The notes below the pieces were generated by a model. That model was given only the letters and a program-made list of their open reading frames with translations. It made no database searches and was not told the origin of the DNA. Made by a program: the position numbers and the translations under genes. From Arenimonas composti TR7-09 = DSM 18010 (GTDB lineage Bacteria > Pseudomonadota > Gammaproteobacteria > Xanthomonadales > Xanthomonadaceae): DNA of 64,000 nucleotides. Shown in pieces: positions 1,499 to 9,765 of the stretch; the first letter of the stretch is position 1, and each line of letters starts with the position of its first letter. The stretch is from NCBI RefSeq assembly GCF_000426365.1, contig NZ_AUFF01000007.1, positions 1-64,000 on the forward strand, in the 5' to 3' direction.

Positions 1499-2038
1499 CT
1501 AGCGCATGCGCCCCAGCGTGTCGTCTCCCCGCACGAAGTGGTGATACAGCGCCGCCAGCACATGCGCCCCGATGACCCAGTAGAAGGCGCTGCCGAGCGC
1601 CTTGTGCCAGTCCTCCAGACGTTCGGCGAGCGCCGGGTCGGGGGCGATCAGCGCCGGCAGCGCGACGTCGGCGAACGGCAGCCGCACCGCCTTGCCGTCG
1701 GCCCACGCGGTCGCCAGGCCGAGCAGCGGCTGCACCAGCAGGAAGGCGTACAGGGACAGGTGCAGGACGGCCGCGGGTAGCGCCTGCCAGAGCGGCAGCG
1801 GCGGGGTGATCGGCGGCGCCCCGTGGCGCAGGCGCAGGGCCAGACGCGGCAGCACGAGCACCAGCACGAAGATGCCGAGCCAGAAATGGCCCTGCACCAT
1901 CAGCGTGCGCCCGAGCGAGCCGCGGGCGAAGCCGCTTCGGAACTCGATCGCCGCATAGGCGACCAGGACGAGCGCCGCCATCAGCCAGTGCAGGCGGCGC
2001 AGGGCGGGGCGGTAGCGCGGCGGATTCGGCGAGGTCAT
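1499..2038 (-). CDS. Cytochrome b561 family membrane protein
   Basis: This 179-residue protein has four hydrophobic spans and the layout of bacterial cytochrome b561, a di-haem b inner-membrane electron carrier. Candidate haem-ligand histidines sit in LHWLMAA (helix 1), QGHFWLGIF (helix 2), and WHKALGSAFYWVIGAHVLAALYHHF (helices 3-4). The start ATG at 2038 precedes MTSPNPPRYR. It is divergent from xthA, with about 155 bases between them. A cytochrome b of a redox complex is the main alternative, but the short single-domain length favours b561. The physiological electron donor and acceptor are not evident. Confidence 0.85.
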   Translation of the reverse strand: MTSPNPPRYRPALRRLHWLMAALVLVAYAAIEFRSGFARGSLGRTLMVQGHFWLGIFVLVLVLPRLALRLRHGAPPITPPLPLWQALPAAVLHLSLYAFLLVQPLLGLATAWADGKAVRLPFADVALPALIAPDPALAERLEDWHKALGSAFYWVIGAHVLAALYHHFVRGDDTLGRMR

Positions 2039-2193
2039 GGCGGGCTCCCGGAGGGGTACATGGCCACGATGCCGGAACGCTCCTGACACGACCTTGACGG
2101 CCGTCAAGGCCGTTCCCGCGCGGCCGGTACGCCGCTGCGCGGTCGCCGCCGCGATCGGCCACAATCGCCGCAGCGGAGAACGAGCCGGAGCCC

Positions 2194-2979
2194 ATGACCA
2201 CGATCGCCACCTGGAACGTCAATTCCCTCAACGTGCGCATGCCGCACCTGCAGCAGTGGCTGCAGTCCGCGCAGCCGGACATCGTCGCGCTGCAGGAAAC
2301 GAAGCTCGACGACCCGAAGTTCCCCGACGACGTGCTCGCCAGTCTCGGCTACCGCAGCGTGTTCTGCGGGCAGAAGACCTACAACGGCGTCGCGATCCTG
2401 TCGCGCAAGCCTTTCACCGCCGAGTGCATCACCGCGGTGCCGGGCCTCGAGGACGAGCAGAAGCGCGTGATCGCCGCCACCGTCGGCGACCTGCGCATCG
2501 TCGACCTGTACGTGGTCAACGGTCAGGCGGTCGGCAGCGAGAAGTACGCCTACAAGCTGCGCTGGCTGGAGGCGGTGCGCGAGTGGCTGCGTGCGGAACT
2601 GCAGGCGCATCCGAACCTGGTCGTGCTCGGCGACTTCAACATCGCCCCCGACGACCGCGACGTGCACGACCCGGCGATCTGGAACGCCGACAGCATCCAC
2701 TCCTCGACCGGCGAACGCGCCGCGCTGCAGTCGCTGCTCGCCCTCGGCCTGCACGACGCCTTCCGCCTGAAGAACGACGGGGGCGGCCACTTCAGCTGGT
2801 GGGACTACCGGATGGGCGCCTTCCGCCGCGGCCTCGGCCTGCGCATCGACCTGATCCTGGTCAGCGACGCGCTGAAGTCACGCGTCGCCGCCTGCACGAT
2901 CGACCGCGAACCGCGCACCTGGGAGCGGCCGAGTGACCACGCCCCCGTCGTCCTCGAGCTCACCGACCCGTACCCGTAG
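2194..2979 (+). CDS. xthA: Exodeoxyribonuclease III (AP endonuclease, XthA/ExoA family)
   Basis: This 261-residue Mg-dependent endonuclease/exonuclease/phosphatase-fold enzyme incises abasic sites and degrades duplex DNA 3'-5' in base excision repair. Visible motifs are the WNVNS strand at the N-terminus, the metal-binding glutamate in LQETK, GDFNIAP near residue 150, WWDYRMGAF, LRIDLILVS and the terminal SDHAPVVLE catalytic Asp-His pair. Length matches the family. The TAG stop falls inside the first bases of a REP palindrome (2976-3038). It is transcribed away from the b561 gene. Confidence 0.95.
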   Translation: MTTIATWNVNSLNVRMPHLQQWLQSAQPDIVALQETKLDDPKFPDDVLASLGYRSVFCGQKTYNGVAILSRKPFTAECITAVPGLEDEQKRVIAATVGDLRIVDLYVVNGQAVGSEKYAYKLRWLEAVREWLRAELQAHPNLVVLGDFNIAPDDRDVHDPAIWNADSIHSSTGERAALQSLLALGLHDAFRLKNDGGGHFSWWDYRMGAFRRGLGLRIDLILVSDALKSRVAACTIDREPRTWERPSDHAPVVLELTDPYP

Positions 2980-3038
2980 GAGCGGCTTCAGCCGCGATCC
3001 GATCGGGCGATTGGCATCGCGGCTGAAGCCGCTCCTAC
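2976..3038. repeat. REP-type palindrome, two full arms
   Basis: The arm starting GTAGGAGCGGCTTCAGCC at 2976-2998 and its exact reverse complement at 3016-3038 flank a 17-base centre. The same 23-base arm occurs at 21496, 27053, 21536, 27146 and 37388. The left arm's TAG is the stop codon of xthA. It lies between two convergent genes, where such palindromes often stabilise mRNA 3' ends. Confidence 0.9.
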
Positions 3039-3050
3039 AAAGGGGAGCGG

Positions 3051-4841
3051 TCAGTTGCCGGCTTCGGGCTTGCCGCCGACCAGGCCCGCGAGGTCGCCAC
3101 CCGACAGGCCGACGTCCTTCATCAGCGAGTCGATCAGCGGCGCCTGGGCGCGATAACGCAGGGCGCTGGCGACGACCTGCTCGGCGAGGTTGCCTCCGTT
3201 CGCGCCACCACCGCCGTTGCCGCCCTCGACCGCCGCGGCGGCGCCGTTGCCGCCGCTCAGCCCGTCGACCTGGATGATCTTGATGCCGTCGATCGACTGC
3301 ATCGGCTTGACGCTCTCGCGGATGATGTCCGGCAGGTGCTTGAGCAGGGCCAGTCGCAGCTGCATCGCGATCTGTTCGGCCGACAGCGTGTTCGCGGCCT
3401 CGTTGACCTTCAGCTGACCCTCGGCATCGACCGCGTAACGGGCCGCCGCGGCTTCGGCGCGCAGCTTCTCGGCGACGGCGTCGGCTTCGGCGCGCACCTT
3501 CTCGGCGGTCGACTCGCCCTCGGCCTCGATGCGGCGCTGGTCGGCGTTCGCGGTCGCCAGCGTGCGGATCGCCTCGGCCTTCTGCTCGGCGGCTTCCTTG
3601 TCGGCCTTCGCGGCGACGGTGATCGCGATCTGCTCGCGCTCGGCTTCCTTCGCCGCCTCGACCAGCTCGATGCGCTTCTGGCGTTCGGCGCGCTCGACCT
3701 CGCGCACGGTGTCGACCTGCTCGGCGGCCTTCACCGCCTCCGCGCGGGCGGCGTCGGCGGCGGCCTGCGCCTCGGACTGCGCCTTCGACTTCTCGGCGAT
3801 CGCGATCGCCTTGTCCTGCTCGGCGAGCTCGACGATCTTCAGCTGCACGACGCGCGCGGTCTCGACGTTCTTCGCCTTCTCGATCTCGCGCTCCTTCAGC
3901 TGCTGCTCCATCGCGATGCGCTGCTCCTCGACCGCGCGCTGGGCGCCGATCTTGGCCTGGTCGATCTGCTGCTGCGCGGCGATCTGCGCGCCCTCGGCCT
4001 CCTGCTGCTTGGCGGCCTGCTCGCGGGCGATCTCGGCGGCCTGCGCGGCGCGGCGGATCTCGATCTCGCGCGCCTGCTCGAGCTTGGCGTACTCCTGGTC
4101 GCGGGAGATCTGCAGGCGCTGCTGCTCGGCCTCCAGGTTCTTGCGCTGCACCAGCACCTCGGTGTCCTGCTCGATCTCGTTGCGCTTCTTGCGGCGCAGC
4201 TCGATCGCCTCGGTCAGCTTGGTCAGGCCCTCGGCGTCGAACGCGTTGTCGGGGTTGAAGAATTCCTTGCTCGTCTGGTCGAGGCCGGTCAGCGACACCG
4301 ACTCCAGCTCGAGGCCGTTCTTGAGGATGTCCTCCGACACCACCTGCTGCACCTTCTGCACGAACAGCGCGCGCTGCTCGTGCAGTTCCTCCATCCCCAT
4401 CTCGGCGGCGACCGAACGCAGCGCGTCGACGAACTTGCCCTCGACCAGCTCCTTCAGCGCCTCCGGCTCCATCGTCTTCATGCCGAGCGTCTGCGCGGCG
4501 TTGGCGATCGATTCCTCGACCGGCTGCACGCGCACGTAGAACTCCGCCTGCACGTCGACGCGCATGCGGTCGCGGGTGATCAGCGCCTGCTGGCGCGCGC
4601 GCTGCACGTCCAGCTTCAGCGTGTTCATGTTCACCCGGATGATCTCGTGCAGCACCGGGAACACCAGCGCGCCGCCGTTGACGATCACCTTCTGCCCGCC
4701 GAAGCCGGTGCGCACGAAGGAGATCTCCTTGGTCGCGCGCCGGTACAGCCGGGCGACGATGAACATCACGAACAGCAGGAAACCGACCGCGACCGCCGCG
4801 ATCATCAGGATGCCCATCAGGTCCATGCCCTTGAATTCCAT
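3051..4841 (-). CDS. yqiK: Flotillin family membrane-scaffold protein (YqiK type)
   Basis: This 596-residue protein has one N-terminal transmembrane segment (about residues 10-32). A band 7/SPFH domain follows (about 40-200, with TGFGGQKVIVNGG and ITRDRMRVDVQAEFYVRV). Then comes a very long Glu/Ala/Gln coiled coil (about 230-500) and a glycine-rich, lower-complexity tail. This is the flotillin/YqiK architecture of proteins that assemble membrane microdomains. It is the last gene of a tight four-gene operon, starting 2 bases after yqiJ; NfeD/OB-fold proteins typically pair with flotillins. Start is ATG 4841 (MEFKGMDLMG). The cargo or partners are unknown. Confidence 0.92.
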   Translation of the reverse strand: MEFKGMDLMGILMIAAVAVGFLLFVMFIVARLYRRATKEISFVRTGFGGQKVIVNGGALVFPVLHEIIRVNMNTLKLDVQRARQQALITRDRMRVDVQAEFYVRVQPVEESIANAAQTLGMKTMEPEALKELVEGKFVDALRSVAAEMGMEELHEQRALFVQKVQQVVSEDILKNGLELESVSLTGLDQTSKEFFNPDNAFDAEGLTKLTEAIELRRKKRNEIEQDTEVLVQRKNLEAEQQRLQISRDQEYAKLEQAREIEIRRAAQAAEIAREQAAKQQEAEGAQIAAQQQIDQAKIGAQRAVEEQRIAMEQQLKEREIEKAKNVETARVVQLKIVELAEQDKAIAIAEKSKAQSEAQAAADAARAEAVKAAEQVDTVREVERAERQKRIELVEAAKEAEREQIAITVAAKADKEAAEQKAEAIRTLATANADQRRIEAEGESTAEKVRAEADAVAEKLRAEAAAARYAVDAEGQLKVNEAANTLSAEQIAMQLRLALLKHLPDIIRESVKPMQSIDGIKIIQVDGLSGGNGAAAAVEGGNGGGGANGGNLAEQVVASALRYRAQAPLIDSLMKDVGLSGGDLAGLVGGKPEAGN

Positions 4842-4843
4842 CT

Positions 4844-5518
4844 TCAGCCTCTGGGGTGCAGTTCGGGGTTGTCGGTGCGGATCGCGCGGAAACGGTTGCC
4901 GTCCTGGGCGACGAGCAGAACGCTCTCGCCGGCGTCGAACGCCTCGCCGGCGTTGTCGGGTTCGAGCATCACGTAATGCATCTGGCCATGCTGGTCGCGC
5001 ACTTTCGCCTGCGCCGGCGAGCCGCTGCGCGCCGTGCCGAGCACGATGGTCGCCATGCGTCCGACGAGGGTGGCGCGCGAGACGGCGTCGGTCTCGTCCT
5101 TCGGCAGCACCTTCGCCAGTACGCCGCCGAACACGCGAACACTCGGCAAGCTCACCGGCAGCGCCACCGGCGCCGCGATCCACCACGGCAGCAGCGCGCC
5201 GCTGAAGCTCCACAGCGCGCCCTGCAGCACGTAGCCGGTGATGCCGAACGCGACCAGGAACACCGCCACCAGGATCAGCACCGGCACCTTGCCGAAATGC
5301 AGCCAGCCGAGCAGGCGGTCGAAGTAGCCGGCGGCCATGATCTCGGAGCCGTCGACGTGCGCGTGCAGGTCGTGGTCGACGTCGAAGAAACCGTCGAGCA
5401 GGCCGTGCGAACTCAGCCCGAACACGAAGCCGAGCATCTCGATCGCCGCCAGGATCAGCATCATCGCCAGCGCGATCGTGAAGGGCAGGTTGTCCGCGGC
5501 GGTGATGAAGTGAAACAT
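4844..5518 (-). CDS. yqiJ: YqiJ-like inner membrane protein with C-terminal OB-fold
   Basis: This 224-residue protein has N-terminal membrane spans (about residues 10-35 and 75-125) flanking a loop with DVDHDLHAHVDG. The soluble C-terminal domain (about 140-220) resembles the OB-fold of YqiJ/NfeD proteins (LVGRMATIVLGTARSGSPAQAKVRDQHGQ shape). YqiJ is the partner of the flotillin YqiK. The start ATG shares one base with the pspA stop (TGATG), and yqiK follows 2 bases on, so the two are translationally linked. The specific role is inferred only from family and context. Confidence 0.85.
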   Translation of the reverse strand: MFHFITAADNLPFTIALAMMLILAAIEMLGFVFGLSSHGLLDGFFDVDHDLHAHVDGSEIMAAGYFDRLLGWLHFGKVPVLILVAVFLVAFGITGYVLQGALWSFSGALLPWWIAAPVALPVSLPSVRVFGGVLAKVLPKDETDAVSRATLVGRMATIVLGTARSGSPAQAKVRDQHGQMHYVMLEPDNAGEAFDAGESVLLVAQDGNRFRAIRTDNPELHPRG

Positions 5519-6090
5519 CAGCCCTCCGTCCGCGACTTGAAGCCGGCCAGGCGTTCGCGGATGCGCTCGCGGCGGGCGAGTTCGTCGAGTTCGCCGAGAC
5601 GCGCCGCGTCCGGGCCACGCGCGGGCTGCGCGAACGTCGCCGGCGGGACGCGCGGCGTGCGCCCGGAGGCCAGTTCGTCCTCGAGTTCGCGGCGCCGCGC
5701 GGCGAGCGCGCCGGCCCAGGCCTCGAGTTCGTGCTGGCGATCGACCGCGTCGGCGATGCTGTCCTCGAGCACCGGCAGCTGCGCCTCGATGTCCAGCTGG
5801 CGGGCGATCGCCGCCTCGGCGAGATCGTCGCGGCCCTCGCGGACGGCGAGTTCGATGCGCTCCGCGAGCTCCTCGTGGCGGCGGTTCTCCTCCGCCAGCC
5901 GCTTCGTCGCCAGGTGGCGGGTGGCGATCGCCTGGCCGAGTTCCGCGCGGACCTCCTCCGCGGTCGCGTCCAGCTCGCGGATCGCCTGGGCCAGGACGAG
6001 GTCCGGCCCGGCGGTCTCGACGCGGTCGAGCAGCGCGTGCACGGAGCCGGCGATCAGCCGGCCGACGCGGGTGCCGATGGCTTCCTTCAT
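5518..6090 (-). CDS. PspA/IM30 family membrane-stress protein
   Basis: This 190-residue, almost entirely helical and charged protein fits PspA/IM30 (ESCRT-III-like) membrane-repair proteins. It has an N-terminal amphipathic start (MKEAIGTRVGRLIAGSVHALLDRVE), the family-like block LVLAQAIRELDATAEEVRAELGQAIATRH, and long coiled coil to about residue 135. At 190 residues it is shorter than E. coli PspA (222). The start overlaps the upstream regulator's stop by ATGA. Lying between an RHH-like regulator and YqiJ/YqiK, it probably supports the flotillin module at the inner membrane. Confidence 0.88.
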   Translation of the reverse strand: MKEAIGTRVGRLIAGSVHALLDRVETAGPDLVLAQAIRELDATAEEVRAELGQAIATRHLATKRLAEENRRHEELAERIELAVREGRDDLAEAAIARQLDIEAQLPVLEDSIADAVDRQHELEAWAGALAARRRELEDELASGRTPRVPPATFAQPARGPDAARLGELDELARRERIRERLAGFKSRTEG

Positions 6091-6614
6091 GGCGTGGTCC
6101 TCTGCGGGGGATTGCTGCGGTCCAGGATCAGGCCGGCCAGCTCGAGCGTCCCCTGCATCCCCTCGGCGACGATGTCGGGATCATAACAAGGGGCCCTGCG
6201 GGTGACGCCGAGGCGCAGCACGGCCTCGATGTAGCGGAAGACGCGGTCGGCCAGGCCGGCCTCGAAGGCCTTCAGCGCCTCGTCGCCGCCCTTGCGCGGG
6301 GCCGGTGCCGGGCCGGCCATCAGGAACGCGGCGAGGTCGGGCAGCCAGTGCAGGCTGTCGGCGACGAGGTCCGAGCGCATGCGCCCGGCGGCCTCGCGCT
6401 GGCGCAGTTCGGCGGCGGTCGGCTCGAGCCGGTCGCGCAGGCCGGCGAGCAGCGATTCGTAGCCGCCGGCATCGCCGGCATCGGCACGGGCGCGTGCGAT
6501 CAGCGCCCGTATTTTCTCGCTCGGCGTGCTCGCGCCGGGGATCCGCAGCGCCGCCAGGAACGCCGCATCGTCGTCGCTGACCCGGACGCTGAGGGGGATG
6601 GACTTGCCGGCCAT
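6087..6614 (-). CDS. Putative ribbon-helix-helix regulator with novel C-terminal domain, first gene of the PspA-flotillin operon
   Basis: I do not recognise a named family for this 175-residue protein. The first about 40 residues (IPLSVRVSDDDAAFLAAL then TPSEKIRALIARAR) have the strand-helix-helix pattern of RHH/MetJ-Arc DNA-binding domains, with the SxSExIR-like second helix. The rest is helical (LRDRLEPTAAELRQREAAGR; RVFRYIEAVLRLGV) and unassigned. ATG 6614 is preferred over 6629 because GGAG sits 7 bases upstream. Its stop overlaps the pspA start (ATGA). A palindrome lies in its own promoter, which suggests autoregulation. The DNA-binding role is inference. Confidence 0.75.
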   Translation of the reverse strand: MAGKSIPLSVRVSDDDAAFLAALRIPGASTPSEKIRALIARARADAGDAGGYESLLAGLRDRLEPTAAELRQREAAGRMRSDLVADSLHWLPDLAAFLMAGPAPAPRKGGDEALKAFEAGLADRVFRYIEAVLRLGVTRRAPCYDPDIVAEGMQGTLELAGLILDRSNPPQRTTP

Positions 6615-6642
6615 GCCAGTGCTCCGCATTCACTTGATGACG

Positions 6643-6670
6643 AGTGTATGCGGATGCATACGGATGTCAA
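6643..6670 (-). promoter_or_regulatory. Promoter of the RHH-pspA-yqiJ-yqiK operon with embedded palindromic operator
   Basis: Read on the minus strand, there is a perfect -35 TTGACA (6670-6665), a 16-base spacer and a -10 TACACT (6648-6643, 4/6 match). The predicted leader is about 20 bases to ATG 6614. The spacer contains the palindrome GTATGC-ATCC-GCATAC (6646-6661). It also holds two tandem 10-base CATCCG-type repeats. RHH proteins typically bind such short repeats, so a regulator bound here would block RNA polymerase. Confidence 0.75.
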
Positions 6671-6677
6671 CAGAAGG

Positions 6678-6755
6678 CGAGAAACGAGGAACGAGGAACG
6701 AGGAACGAGTGAAGGCCGGTGCGCCGCCAACTCGTTCCTCGTTCCTCGTTACTCG
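6678..6755. repeat. CGAGGAA heptamer inverted repeat
   Basis: The left arm (6678-6709) is a run of 7-base units CGAGAAA, CGAGGAA x3 ending CGAG. The right arm (6731-6755) is the complementary CTCGTTC/CTCGTTA run. About 21 bases separate them. It ends 3 bases before the stop codon of the leftward EAL gene and 7 bases from the -35 of the pspA operon. Related elements lie at 48261-48347 and 57461-57618. It could fold into a long hairpin acting as a 3' end. Confidence 0.85.
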
Positions 6756-6758
6756 CTT

Positions 6759-9326
6759 TCAGATGAACTGGCGCTCGAACTCGCCCACCGTCATCGGCCT
6801 TCCGAACAGCCAGCCCTGCATCTCGTCGCAGCGCACCAGGCGCAGCAGCTTGGCCTGTTCCTCTTCCTCGACGCCCTCGGCGACGACGTGCAGGCCGAGG
6901 GCGTGGGCGAGGCCGATCGTGTTGGTCACCAGCGCGAGGCTCTCGGGGCTTTCGGCGATCCGGCCGACGAAGCTGCGGTCGATCTTCAGCACGTCGGCGG
7001 GCAGCTGCGACAGGTAGTTCAGCGACGAGTAGCCGGTGCCGAAGTCGTCGATCGCGACCCGGCAGCCGAGCTCGCGCACCTCGTGCAGGATGCGGATGCT
7101 GCGTTGGATGTCGTCCATCACCAGGCTCTCGGTGATCTCGACGTCGACGCCGTGTTCGGGGCCGGCGGCCCTGAGCAGCACGCCGGCGTCGCGCAGGAAG
7201 CCATCGTCGCGCAGCTCGCGCGCCGACACGTTGATCGCCAGGCGCAGGCCGCCGTGGCCGCGGCGCTGCCAGCGCGCCGAGATCGCGATCGCCTGCTCGA
7301 GTATCCAGCGGCCCACCGGCAGGATCAGCCCGGTCTCCTCGAGCAGCGGGATGAAGTCCAGCGGCGGAATCAGCCCGCGCTGCGGGTGCCGCCAGCGCAG
7401 CAGCGCCTCGGCGCCCGTCAGGTTCTGCGTGCGACCGTCGAACTTCGGTTGCAGGAACAGCTCGAACTGCAACTGCTCGACCGCGACGCGCAGCTCGCGC
7501 TCGATGTCGATGCGCTTCTGCGCGCGCTGGCCGAAGGCTTCGTCGTAGACGACGAGGCGGGCGCCGGTATTGCGCGCCTCGGACAGCGCCGACATCACGT
7601 TGCGCTCGATGGTGTCGGCGTCGTCGCCGTGCCGCGGCGCCTGCAGCAGGCCGCAGCGCAGGTCGGCGTAGACGTGCTCGCCCTGCACGTCGAACGGTTG
7701 TCGCGAGCAGGCCTCGAGCAGCGAGGTCATCGTCGCGACCGCCTGTTCGATGTCGCCGTCGCCGGCGAGCGCCACCGCGAACGAATCGTCGCCGTGGTGG
7801 GCGATCAGCGGCTCCTCGCCGAGCAGCTCGCGCAGGCGCGCGCCGATCGCGCGCAGCAGCGCCTCGCTGAACTCGCGTCCGCGCGAATCGTTGAACACGT
7901 GGAAGCTGACCGCGTCGAACAGCGCGATCGTCTGCGGTCCGGATTCCAGCCGCCGGTCGAGCTGTGTCGCGAACGCGATCCGGTTCGGCAACCCGGTCAC
8001 CGTGTTGTGGAAGGCGAGGAACTCGAGCCGCTCGCTCTTGCCGATGAAGTCGATGCCGTGCTCGATCTCGCGCGCGAGCCGGCGCAGCAGCGCGTTCTCC
8101 TCGTCGTCGAAAGCGCCGCTCTGGCTGCTGTGCAGCACCAGCGCGCCCCACGGCGGCGTGCCCAGCGGCAGCGCGGCCTTGGCGCAGACATCGTCGCGGA
8201 CGCGGCCGCTGGCATCGGTCCAGGCGGCGCCGTCCTTGCGCACCTGGGTGACCACCGGCGTGCCGGTCTGCATCGCCGCCAGCGCGGTCGACTGCTCGGA
8301 ATCGCCGGTGGCGCCGGCGGCGGCGACCGCGGCCACGAGTTCCGGGTCGCCTGCAGAAGCGCCGACCCGCAGGCCGTCGTGATCGGTGTCGGCCTCGACG
8401 ACGGTCGCCGCGAGGAAGCCGCCCTCGGCCACCGCCAGCTCGCAACACATGCGCAGCAGCTCGTCGGCGCTGCCCGCCCGCAGCACCGCATTGCCGAGCG
8501 CGCCGAGCACCGAACGCACGCGGCTGAGCTGGCGGATGCGTTCCTTCTGGGCGAACGACTCGGTCACGTCCCGATCGATGCCGCGGAAGCCGGTCATCCG
8601 GCCGTCCTCGTCCAGGACGGGGGTGGCGCTGCTCTCCAGGCGCACGCGATGGCCCTCGCGGTGACACCAGGTCACCACCCAGTTGCGCCAGCCCTTGCGC
8701 TCGCGGACGCACTCGGCCATGTGGACGGCGATCGCGTCGCGCTCGTCCGGGGCGGCGAACTTCAGCACCGGGGCGCCGACGAGCTCCGTGATCGACCAGC
8801 CGAGCACGCGTTCGGCGGCCGGGTTGCTGTAGGTCAGCACGCCGTCGATGCTGGATTCCCAGATCCAGTCGTCGGTGCTCTCGAGGATCGAGCGGAAGCG
8901 CTCCTCGCTCTCGCGCAGCGCCCGTTCTGCGACGACCCGCGCCTGCCGTTCGCGATTGACGCGCAGCGCGCGCTCGATCGCGCCCGGCAGGCGCACGAGG
9001 TTGTCCTTCAGCACGTAGTCGGCGGCGCCGCTGCGCAGCGCCTCGATCGCCAGTTCCTCGCCGATGGTGCCCGACACGAACAGGAACGGGATGTCGGGCG
9101 CCGTCTCCCGGCAGATCTCCAGCGCCTCGCGGCCGCTGAAGCCCGGCATCGAGAAGTCGCTGAGCACCACGTCCGGGGGGGCATCCGCCAGCCGCTGCCG
9201 CAGCGAGGCGGCGTCGGCCACGCGGTCGATCAGGAGTCCAGGGCCGAACCGGCGCAGGGACAGCGTGATCAGCTCGGCATCGGCCGTCGAGTCCTCGACC
9301 AGCAGGATGGACAGCCGTTCGCCCAT
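6759..9326 (-). CDS. Receiver-PAS-GAF-degenerate GGDEF-EAL protein (probable c-di-GMP phosphodiesterase)
   Basis: This 855-residue protein starts with a receiver domain (about 5-120, phosphoacceptor Asp57 in LSDFSMPG), then a coiled linker. A PAS domain (about 140-260) and a GAF-like region (about 270-420) follow. Next come a GGDEF-like domain (about 430-590) and an EAL domain (about 605-850). The GGDEF signature is replaced by HHGDDSF at 510-516, so cyclase activity is unlikely. The EAL side keeps EALLR (640-644), the DDFGTGYSSL loop and AEGVE, which suggests c-di-GMP hydrolysis. It is the last gene of the kinase operon, one base after the response regulator. The input signal is unknown. Confidence 0.92.
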   Translation of the reverse strand: MGERLSILLVEDSTADAELITLSLRRFGPGLLIDRVADAASLRQRLADAPPDVVLSDFSMPGFSGREALEICRETAPDIPFLFVSGTIGEELAIEALRSGAADYVLKDNLVRLPGAIERALRVNRERQARVVAERALRESEERFRSILESTDDWIWESSIDGVLTYSNPAAERVLGWSITELVGAPVLKFAAPDERDAIAVHMAECVRERKGWRNWVVTWCHREGHRVRLESSATPVLDEDGRMTGFRGIDRDVTESFAQKERIRQLSRVRSVLGALGNAVLRAGSADELLRMCCELAVAEGGFLAATVVEADTDHDGLRVGASAGDPELVAAVAAAGATGDSEQSTALAAMQTGTPVVTQVRKDGAAWTDASGRVRDDVCAKAALPLGTPPWGALVLHSSQSGAFDDEENALLRRLAREIEHGIDFIGKSERLEFLAFHNTVTGLPNRIAFATQLDRRLESGPQTIALFDAVSFHVFNDSRGREFSEALLRAIGARLRELLGEEPLIAHHGDDSFAVALAGDGDIEQAVATMTSLLEACSRQPFDVQGEHVYADLRCGLLQAPRHGDDADTIERNVMSALSEARNTGARLVVYDEAFGQRAQKRIDIERELRVAVEQLQFELFLQPKFDGRTQNLTGAEALLRWRHPQRGLIPPLDFIPLLEETGLILPVGRWILEQAIAISARWQRRGHGGLRLAINVSARELRDDGFLRDAGVLLRAAGPEHGVDVEITESLVMDDIQRSIRILHEVRELGCRVAIDDFGTGYSSLNYLSQLPADVLKIDRSFVGRIAESPESLALVTNTIGLAHALGLHVVAEGVEEEEQAKLLRLVRCDEMQGWLFGRPMTVGEFERQFI

Positions 9327-9327
9327 C

Positions 9328-9765
9328 TCAGCCCGGTGCCTGGTTGGCGATCATCCAGTACATGCCGACCTGGGCCACCGTTTCCGCGAATTCGGCGAAG
9401 TCGACCGGCTTCACGATGTAGCTGTTGACCCCGAGGCTGTAGCTGGCCATCAGGTCGCCCTCTTCGCGCGACGAGGTCATCATCACCACGGGGATCGCCT
9501 TCAGCGCCGGGTCGGCCTTCATCGCCCTCAGCACTTCGAGGCCGTCCATGCGCGGCATCTTCAGGTCGAGCAGCACCAGCCGCGGCAGGCCCTGCGCGCG
9601 CTCGGCGTGGGCGCCCTCGCGGCGCAGGAACTCGAGCGCCTCGACGCCGTCGTTGACACGTTCGACCCGGTTGGCGATCCCGCGCTTGCGCAGCGTGCGC
9701 AGGGTCATCTCGGCGTCGGCGTCGGAATCCTCGACGAGCAGTACTTCGACGGTCTGGTAATTCAT
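9328..9765 (-). CDS. Single-domain response regulator (Rcp1/CheY-like)
   Basis: This 145-residue stand-alone receiver has the acidic pair in LLVEDSDADA, the phosphoacceptor Asp in LVLLDLKMPRMDG, the Thr/Ser in VMMTSS and the Lys in IVKPVDF. There is no output domain. The inserted loop after the third helix resembles the Rcp1 type that pairs with bacteriophytochrome-like kinases. Its start overlaps the kinase stop by ATGA, so it is the likely direct phosphoryl acceptor of that kinase. It may relay to the downstream receiver-EAL protein by protein contact, which is inference. Confidence 0.93.
   Translation of the reverse strand: MNYQTVEVLLVEDSDADAEMTLRTLRKRGIANRVERVNDGVEALEFLRREGAHAERAQGLPRLVLLDLKMPRMDGLEVLRAMKADPALKAIPVVMMTSSREEGDLMASYSLGVNSYIVKPVDFAEFAETVAQVGMYWMIANQAPG

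What the first reader, a model, noticed from the sequence alone, without database searches (positions are those of the whole stretch)
4841..6670. RHH-like regulator, PspA, YqiJ and flotillin operon with an operator inside its own promoter spacer
The four genes overlap or abut. Their only apparent promoter has a perfect TTGACA, a 16-base spacer and TACACT, and the spacer contains the palindrome GTATGC-ATCC-GCATAC. The first gene looks like a ribbon-helix-helix DNA-binding protein fused to an unassigned domain. This could be a self-regulated membrane-stress module in which the regulator controls a PspA/flotillin membrane-repair unit. I know of YqiJ/YqiK and PspA individually, but not of this regulator.
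Basis: partly seen in the sequence, partly recalled or inferred. Interest (0 to 1): 0.72.

Follow-up and report, generated by a model that had tools for sequence, protein, structure and literature searches.

The report
Likely self-regulator of flotillin operons
A small DNA-binding protein of a family we found no description of sits at the head of bacterial gene sets for membrane proteins (PspA, YqiJ, flotillin), and a row of evenly spaced short DNA sites over the promoter suggests that it controls these genes and itself.

Summary
Four overlapping or abutting minus-strand genes (RHH-like regulator, PspA, YqiJ, flotillin) share one TTGACA-16-TACACT promoter carrying GTATGC-ATCC-GCATAC (the palindrome runs three bases into the -10 box). 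Among 38 non-redundant orthologue loci, 34 are followed by PspA and/or YqiJ. The exact palindrome occurs only in the window (1 of 38). What is conserved is a tandem array of 10-bp sites, TACA-NN-TGTA, spaced 10 or 11 bp. This word ranks first, narrowly ahead of other registers of the array, among 2,304 palindromes (26 of 38 loci; shuffle mean 2.5). A tandem pair is significant in 36 of 38 loci (28 of 38 with strict scoring) and in 0 of 9 YqiJ operons without the regulator. In the window three sites run from the -35 box across the -10 box. Three relatives with no YqiJ found keep the array, seen only at the regulator's own promoter. Best reading: an autorepressor tiling its promoter, relieved by a membrane signal through a new helical domain. 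Binding, repression and signal are untested. New variant of a known kind.

The parts
6087..6614 (-). RHH-like regulator gene, 175 aa, first gene of the operon
6468..6614 (-). RHH-like DNA-binding domain, residues 1-49 (M1, R11, S32, K34, R36 invariant in 22 sequences)
   Evidence: AF2 pLDDT 89.1, helices 14-22 and 31-47, no strand assigned in the lone chain; hhalign against RHH_1; alignment A3
6114..6461 (-). C-terminal all-helical domain, residues 52-167, four helices; putative sensor or partner-binding domain
   Evidence: AF2 model pLDDT 86.6; no PDB or viral-library match at E <= 0.001
5518..6090 (-). pspA-like gene, 190 aa (PspA_IM30)
4844..5518 (-). yqiJ gene, 224 aa (YqiJ_N + YqiJ_OB)
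3051..4841 (-). flotillin/yqiK gene, 596 aa (Band_7 + Flot)
6665..6670 (-). -35 box TTGACA
6643..6648 (-). -10 box TACACT
6639..6668 (-). operator array: three tandem 10-bp sites, GACATCCGTA (6668-6659), TGCATCCGCA (6658-6649), TACACTCGTC (6648-6639), lying over the promoter
   Evidence: pair, p=0.003, the lowest possible with 300 shuffles; third site; strict pair p=0.01

Best explanation
The first gene encodes an autoregulatory ribbon-helix-helix repressor. A dimer reads one 10-bp site (consensus TACA-NN-TGTA) with its N-terminal beta-ribbon. Neighbouring dimers sit one helical turn apart, side by side on one face of the DNA, and cover two to three sites that in the window run from inside the -35 box across the -10 box, keeping RNA polymerase off. 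The operon's own regulator thereby sets the level of PspA, YqiJ and flotillin. Repression is relieved through the C-terminal four-helix domain by a membrane-state signal, most likely passed by an operon partner (YqiJ/flotillin rather than PspA, which is missing from some operons). Shown here: gene linkage, RHH similarity of the N-terminus, the array, its spacing, its position at the promoter, and that it is not seen at yqiJ operons lacking the regulator. Inferred: dimer per site, cooperativity, repression rather than activation, the signal, and membrane repair as output.
For: De novo screen of 256 palindromic words x 9 gaps with 30 shuffled sets: TACA-NN-TGTA ranks first (z 11.1), 26 of 38 loci against shuffle mean 2.5, maximum 7. 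Site spacing 10 seen 42 times against mean 2.2, maximum 5; spacing 20 seen 19 times against 1.7, maximum 6. Tandem pair p<0.05 in 36 of 38 loci, against 0 of 9 RHH-less yqiJ operons and 9 of 222 control windows. Strict unweighted scoring: 17 of 22 earlier and 11 of 16 later loci. A third site lies beside the pair in 31 of 38, against 34% at random anchors. Promoter-like sites touch the array in 22 of 29 loci, against 10.8 for a randomly placed array. Three genomes with no YqiJ match keep the array, and a stringent pattern finds it once per genome, at the regulator's promoter. One regulator clade uses 11-bp spacing in 8 of 10 against 2 of 28 elsewhere. hhalign to RHH_1 87.6%.
Against: No experiment. 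L028 and L031 lack a significant array; 10 of 38 miss p<0.05 under strict scoring. The weights, and the exact consensus, were set after seeing the sequences, the later loci included, so no clean hold-out exists. Other registers score nearly as high in the screen (GTAT-N8-ATAC z 11.0; ATAC-N4-GTAT z 10.9, in 27 of 38), and spacings 4, 6, 14, 16, 18 and 30 also exceed every shuffle; I read most of these as by-products of palindromic neighbours. The 9 negative operons come from 5 genera, four of them from one genus. Foldseek gives no significant match to either model, PDB sequence searches find no RHH relative, and the model assigns no strand to residues 1-13. Of 29 promoter-like sites 7 do not overlap the array and 3 touch it by one base; 9 of 38 loci have none at the threshold. 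Array words resemble parts of promoter boxes, so the overlap is not fully independent. The spacing correlation rests on one clade.
Confidence: 0.72

Rival explanations
1. The RHH protein activates, or both activates and represses, its operon from the same array.
For: In 7 of 29 loci the array does not overlap the best promoter-like site.
Against: In the window and in 22 of 29 loci the array touches the promoter core, the usual position of a repressor (general knowledge).
Confidence: 0.13
2. The array belongs to another transcription factor, and the RHH-like protein has a different role (for example a protein-protein adaptor).
For: Similar TACA..TGTA words lie upstream of a TetR-family gene in the same genome, so other regulators may use them.
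Against: The array tracks the regulator gene: 36 of 38 with it, 0 of 9 yqiJ operons without it, and in three genomes with no YqiJ match a stringent pattern finds it only at the regulator's promoter. Spacing follows the regulator's subfamily.
Confidence: 0.08
3. A single inverted-repeat operator bound by one dimer or dimer pair.
For: The exact palindrome is present in the window. In the screen GTAT-N8-ATAC and ATAC-N4-GTAT score nearly as high as TACA-NN-TGTA.
Against: The exact palindrome is in 1 of 38 loci. The other registers fall out of any TACA-NN-TGTA array, and spacing 10/20 with a third site in 31 of 38 needs a tandem array.
Confidence: 0.07

Closest known systems
PspA-flotillin-YqiJ operons with a CesT/Tir-like protein (PMC11237479; 12 of 32 passages shown)
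   Same: PspA, a TM + band-7 + flotillin protein and a YqiJ-type membrane protein in one operon, with a further small protein beside PspA
   Different: Here the further protein is RHH-like with a helical C-terminus, and no AAA+ gene lies beside the operon. In the passages shown, RHH appears only as the last gene of a spermine-synthase type operon and in an actinobacterial transport operon. The supplementary tables could not be read.
YqiJ/YqiK (NfeD2-SPFH2) operon of E. coli (PMC2636767; 12 of 32 passages shown)
   Same: yqiJ in one operon with a flotillin-type gene
   Different: PspA is not named in the main text, and no regulator appears in the passages shown
RHH autorepressors with repeated operators, such as plasmid omega protein on heptad arrays (PMC4803016; passages) and MetJ (recalled)
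   Same: RHH N-terminus and tandem short sites at the promoter of the own operon
   Different: 10-bp TACA-NN-TGTA site, helical C-terminal domain without a match, membrane-protein genes as cargo
Regulators of PspA operons: PspF of E. coli, and HTH regulators noted in PspA operons (PMC9239133; passages; PMC11237479)
   Same: A dedicated regulator encoded with or beside a PspA operon
   Different: PspF is an AAA+/Fis-type protein and the others are HTH; here an RHH-like protein over a sigma-70-type promoter
PspA-YdjGHI of B. subtilis (PMC8581546; abstract and outline)
   Same: An SPFH protein ties PspA to the membrane
   Different: No RHH regulator in the abstract; different membrane partners

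Membership tests
Ribbon-helix-helix superfamily | Sequence profile of the strand plus two helices | tested here: met
   hhalign 87.6% over 40 columns against 8 hand-trimmed RHH_1 proteins; 40 column-shuffled decoys at most 10.9%. Single-sequence Pfam scans were not significant: DUF6290 in 3 of 23 members (best E 0.019), MatP_C in 1 (0.023).
Ribbon-helix-helix superfamily | Fold: N-terminal strand then two helices | tested here: inconclusive
   Helices 14-22 and 31-47 predicted with confidence, but no strand assigned to residues 1-13 of the lone chain; Foldseek hits not significant.
Ribbon-helix-helix superfamily | Intertwined dimer with an antiparallel two-strand ribbon | not testable with these tools
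   Only single chains could be modelled.
Ribbon-helix-helix superfamily | Binding to repeated short sites | tested here: inconclusive
   Sites and spacing present and conserved; binding untested.
PspA/IM30 family (second gene) | PspA_IM30 profile above curated cut-off | tested here: met
   49.5 bits against 33.9. The NCBIfam equivalog PspA cut-off is not reached (37.9 against 242.95).
YqiJ/YqiK operon | YqiJ_N and YqiJ_OB domains next to a flotillin/Band_7 protein | tested here: met
CesT/Tir-PspA-flotillin operon (PMC11237479) | CesT/Tir protein beside PspA | tested here: inconclusive
   The regulator's C-terminal domain is modelled all-helical, with no strand of three or more residues. That CesT/Tir is alpha/beta is recalled; no direct profile comparison was made.
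Type II toxin-antitoxin system (RHH antitoxin) | Adjacent small toxin gene | tested here: not met
   In the window the next gene is pspA, overlapping by 4 bases; PspA and/or YqiJ follows in 34 of 38 loci.
PspF-type Psp regulator | AAA+ enhancer-binding activator | tested here: not met
   175 aa, no match in Pfam or NCBIfam at E <= 1.

The most novel reading that the evidence does not exclude
A new transcription-factor family whose C-terminal helical domain reads the state of the YqiJ/flotillin membrane scaffold directly, so that a membrane-microdomain machine controls its own synthesis through RHH dimers tiled on promoter arrays.
Probability: 0.35. Interest if true: 0.78.

Novelty: new variant of a known kind. 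Interest (0 to 1): 0.62.

Why it matters
How flotillin/YqiJ operons are controlled seems little described: of 22 papers holding 'YqiJ' in the library, 20 were listed, several of them unrelated, and none is by title about its regulation (listing only). This gives a candidate regulator, a defined site and a one-promoter test. It would offer a way into what bacterial flotillin systems sense, and a natural system for how RHH dimers tile DNA at 10- versus 11-bp spacing.

Tried and rejected
Foldseek of the whole model against PDB and viral structures: nothing at E <= 0.001. PDB sequence searches: no RHH protein among the matches. PHROGs: nothing better than E 0.027. PADLOC at E <= 0.01 and plasmids at E <= 0.001: no match. 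A 12-bp EM motif drifted into a second register, because neighbouring sites make their own palindromes, and was replaced by a fixed 10-bp consensus. A wider regulon in the window genome was sought by pattern with up to 2 mismatches: 17 hits against 15 for the reversed control. The operon's own site is one of two hits with a single mismatch (the other is GC-rich); one AT-rich hit lies before a TetR gene and was not assigned to this regulator. So no wider regulon was found, but weak sites would be lost in this noise. A conserved cysteine sensor was dropped: C143 is invariant in the 7 sequences of A1 but not in the 23 of A2. A toxin-antitoxin reading was rejected. Of 50 loci with an assigned start, 12 were dropped as 85% or more identical to a kept one, leaving 38; L010, L011, L013, L015 and L034, copies of loci already in the set, were left out beforehand.
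Full report
What is there. The window has about 71-72% G+C and lies in a genome of 3.16 Mb in 29 contigs. Its order is probably Lysobacterales: L023, from a record titled Lysobacterales bacterium, encodes a regulator at least 85% identical to that of a same-order genome (L012). On the minus strand four genes overlap or abut: the regulator (6087-6614), pspA (5518-6090), yqiJ (4844-5518) and flotillin (3051-4841). Pfam confirms the last three and has nothing for the first; NCBIfam also has nothing for the first. The promoter TTGACA-16-TACACT is the only one found in 2000-9500. The palindrome is exact at 6646-6661 and takes in the first three bases of the -10 box, so it is not wholly inside the spacer.

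The regulator family. Counts include the own genome. The regulator was found in 7 of 61 relatives, and in none of the 26 congeners, some of them incomplete; in 24 of 397 genomes of the order; in 3 of 369 of the class with the smaller profile A1; in 5 of 398 of the phylum; and, among named genome records, at 18 loci out of 39 pattern matches. Of 50 loci with an assigned start, 38 are less than 85% identical to each other. Architectures: regulator-PspA-YqiJ-flotillin in 13; regulator-PspA-YqiJ in 17, all with at most 1.5 kb fetched after the regulator, so flotillin could not be seen; regulator-YqiJ-flotillin without PspA in 3; regulator-PspA with about 1 kb left in 1; none of these partners in 4. 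The gap to the next gene ranges from a short overlap to 118 bp, with one outlier of 331 bp (L063). Of the 4 without partners, L022 is followed directly by a Band_7 protein and L024-L026 have no partner next to them; no YqiJ_N match was found in these 4 genomes, whose completeness is not told. In the order, YqiJ_N occurs in 28 of 250 genomes; 19 of these are among the regulator-positive genomes, and the other 9 have no regulator within 1.5 kb of yqiJ.

Is it an RHH protein? Single sequences score poorly: DUF6290 in 3 of 23 members and MatP_C in 1, E about 0.02. Profile against profile, the first 49 residues of 22 orthologues align over 40 columns with eight RHH_1 proteins found in relatives at 87.6%; forty column-shuffled decoys reach at most 10.9%. 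The alignments are shallow. AlphaFold2 gives an N-terminus without assigned strand, then helices 14-22 and 31-47 (pLDDT 89.1 for the fragment; 86.6 for the whole), then four more helices. Foldseek finds nothing significant. Its 11 weak hits to the fragment (E 2.6-9.5) are two chains of the TCP domain of PCF6, eight chains from entries titled 'Structure of a transcription factor and DNA complex' (that these are TCP proteins is recalled), and one from a ParD2:ParE2 complex. A review states that the PCF6 TCP domain is an RHH homodimer (PMC10049435, passage), and another lists ParD among RHH proteins (PMC4803016, passages). No match was found for the C-terminal domain.

The operator. Screening 256 palindromic words with gaps 0-8 in 150 bp upstream of the 38 genes, TACA-NN-TGTA ranks first (z 11.1; 26 of 38 with at most one mismatch; 30 shuffled sets, mean 2.5, maximum 7). 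Two other registers come close (z 11.0 and 10.9, the latter in 27 of 38). Sites occur in tandem at spacing 10 (42 pairs; mean 2.2, maximum 5), 11 (11; 1.9; 6) and 20 (19; 1.7; 6). Spacings 4 (17), 6 (21), 14 (10), 16 (9), 18 (7) and 30 (7) also exceed the shuffles; 4, 6, 14 and 16 are what one gets when the junction between two palindromic sites is counted as a site too. A tandem pair is significant in 36 of 38 loci; the misses are L028 and L031. Because the weights were chosen with the sequences in view, a strict unweighted version was also run: 17 of 22 earlier loci and 11 of 16 fetched later. The idea was noted, but the exact consensus was fixed after the later loci had been seen, so these are not a clean hold-out. 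Controls with the weighted test: 0 of 9 yqiJ operons without the regulator (5 genera, four loci from one) and 9 of 222 sampled windows of the same loci; a score of at least 12.3 occurs in 37 of 38 upstream regions and 24 of 1357 windows. A third site flanks the pair in 31 of 38 (random anchors 34%). In the window the three sites are GACATCCGTA, TGCATCCGCA and TACACTCGTC at 6668-6639. The first takes in the last four bases of the -35 box, the second fills the spacer, the third begins with the -10 box.

The array follows the regulator. In L024-L026's genomes a stringent pattern (at most one mismatch) occurs at one place each, and that sequence is the one upstream of the regulator; weaker sites would be missed. 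In the window genome a looser pattern gives 17 hits against 15 for its reversed control; this promoter is one of two single-mismatch hits, and an AT-rich cluster lies before a TetR gene. One regulator clade of ten loci (support 95/89, or 97/98 with L063 beside it) starts with a shorter N-terminal arm (two residues fewer in the two members aligned; the other eight begin alike) and uses 11-bp spacing in 8 of 10 against 2 of 28 (Fisher p=3.7e-5). As this is one clade, it counts as few events. Promoter-like sites were found in 29 of 38 loci and touch the array in 22, three of these by a single base; a randomly placed array would touch 10.8, though array words themselves resemble parts of promoter boxes.

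Mechanism. Shown: linkage, profile similarity, array, spacing, position, co-occurrence. Inferred: one dimer per site, cooperative tiling, exclusion of RNA polymerase, negative autoregulation of the whole operon. The trigger is unknown. YqiJ is the most constant partner (33 of 38), so a signal from the YqiJ/flotillin scaffold through the C-terminal domain is my preferred guess. SPFH-PspA coupling is known in B. subtilis (PMC8581546, abstract), and release of PspF by PspA in E. coli (PMC9239133, passage).

Origin in this genome. In 20 of 26 congeners xthA was found at E <= 1e-50. At least one of the two genes on its other side is beside it in 19 of these 20, but no yqiK or yqiJ lies within 1.5 kb. 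Acquisition by this species and loss elsewhere both fit; I did not decide between them. A genome of the same family (G489, L066) has yqiJ and yqiK without the regulator or PspA beside them.

Novelty. Searches for YqiJ/YqiK/PspA/flotillin (4 listed), flotillin/YqiJ/ribbon-helix-helix (4 listed), YqiJ (20 of 22 listed), flotillin/PspA/operon/repressor (5 listed) and PspA/flotillin/YuaF/YqiK (15 of 131 listed) showed no paper that by title concerns this regulator. The closest (PMC11237479, 12 of 32 passages shown) describes PspA-flotillin-YqiJ operons with a CesT/Tir protein, and RHH genes only in other contexts in what was shown; its supplements were not readable here. The library lacks most subscription journals.

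Noticed in passing
window 6680-6757: Inverted CGAGGAACGAG / CTCGTTCCTCG repeats just upstream of the promoter; the search with this region gave 55 matches in the genome, itself included, so it looks like a dispersed REP-like element.
   Followed up: partly
L114 1480-1530 (own genome C10:27691): A cluster of TACA..TGTA words upstream of a TetR-family gene, with a reductase-like ORF (judged by eye) on the other strand; probably that regulator's own operator.
   Followed up: partly
L024, L025, L026: Copies of the regulator without pspA, yqiJ or flotillin beside them, with a strong array at their own promoter and no YqiJ_N match in the genome; what they control is open.
   Followed up: partly
L022:385-1805: The regulator overlaps a Band_7/SPFH gene, without PspA or YqiJ nearby.
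   Followed up: partly
window 5518-6090: This PspA is shorter than many relatives: 190 aa, while most relatives align over 217-227 positions with it.
   Followed up: no
L059: The regulator match covers only about 50 residues and the ORF then diverges, as if truncated or frame-shifted, while a marginal array (p=0.047) and downstream pspA/yqiJ matches remain.
   Followed up: no
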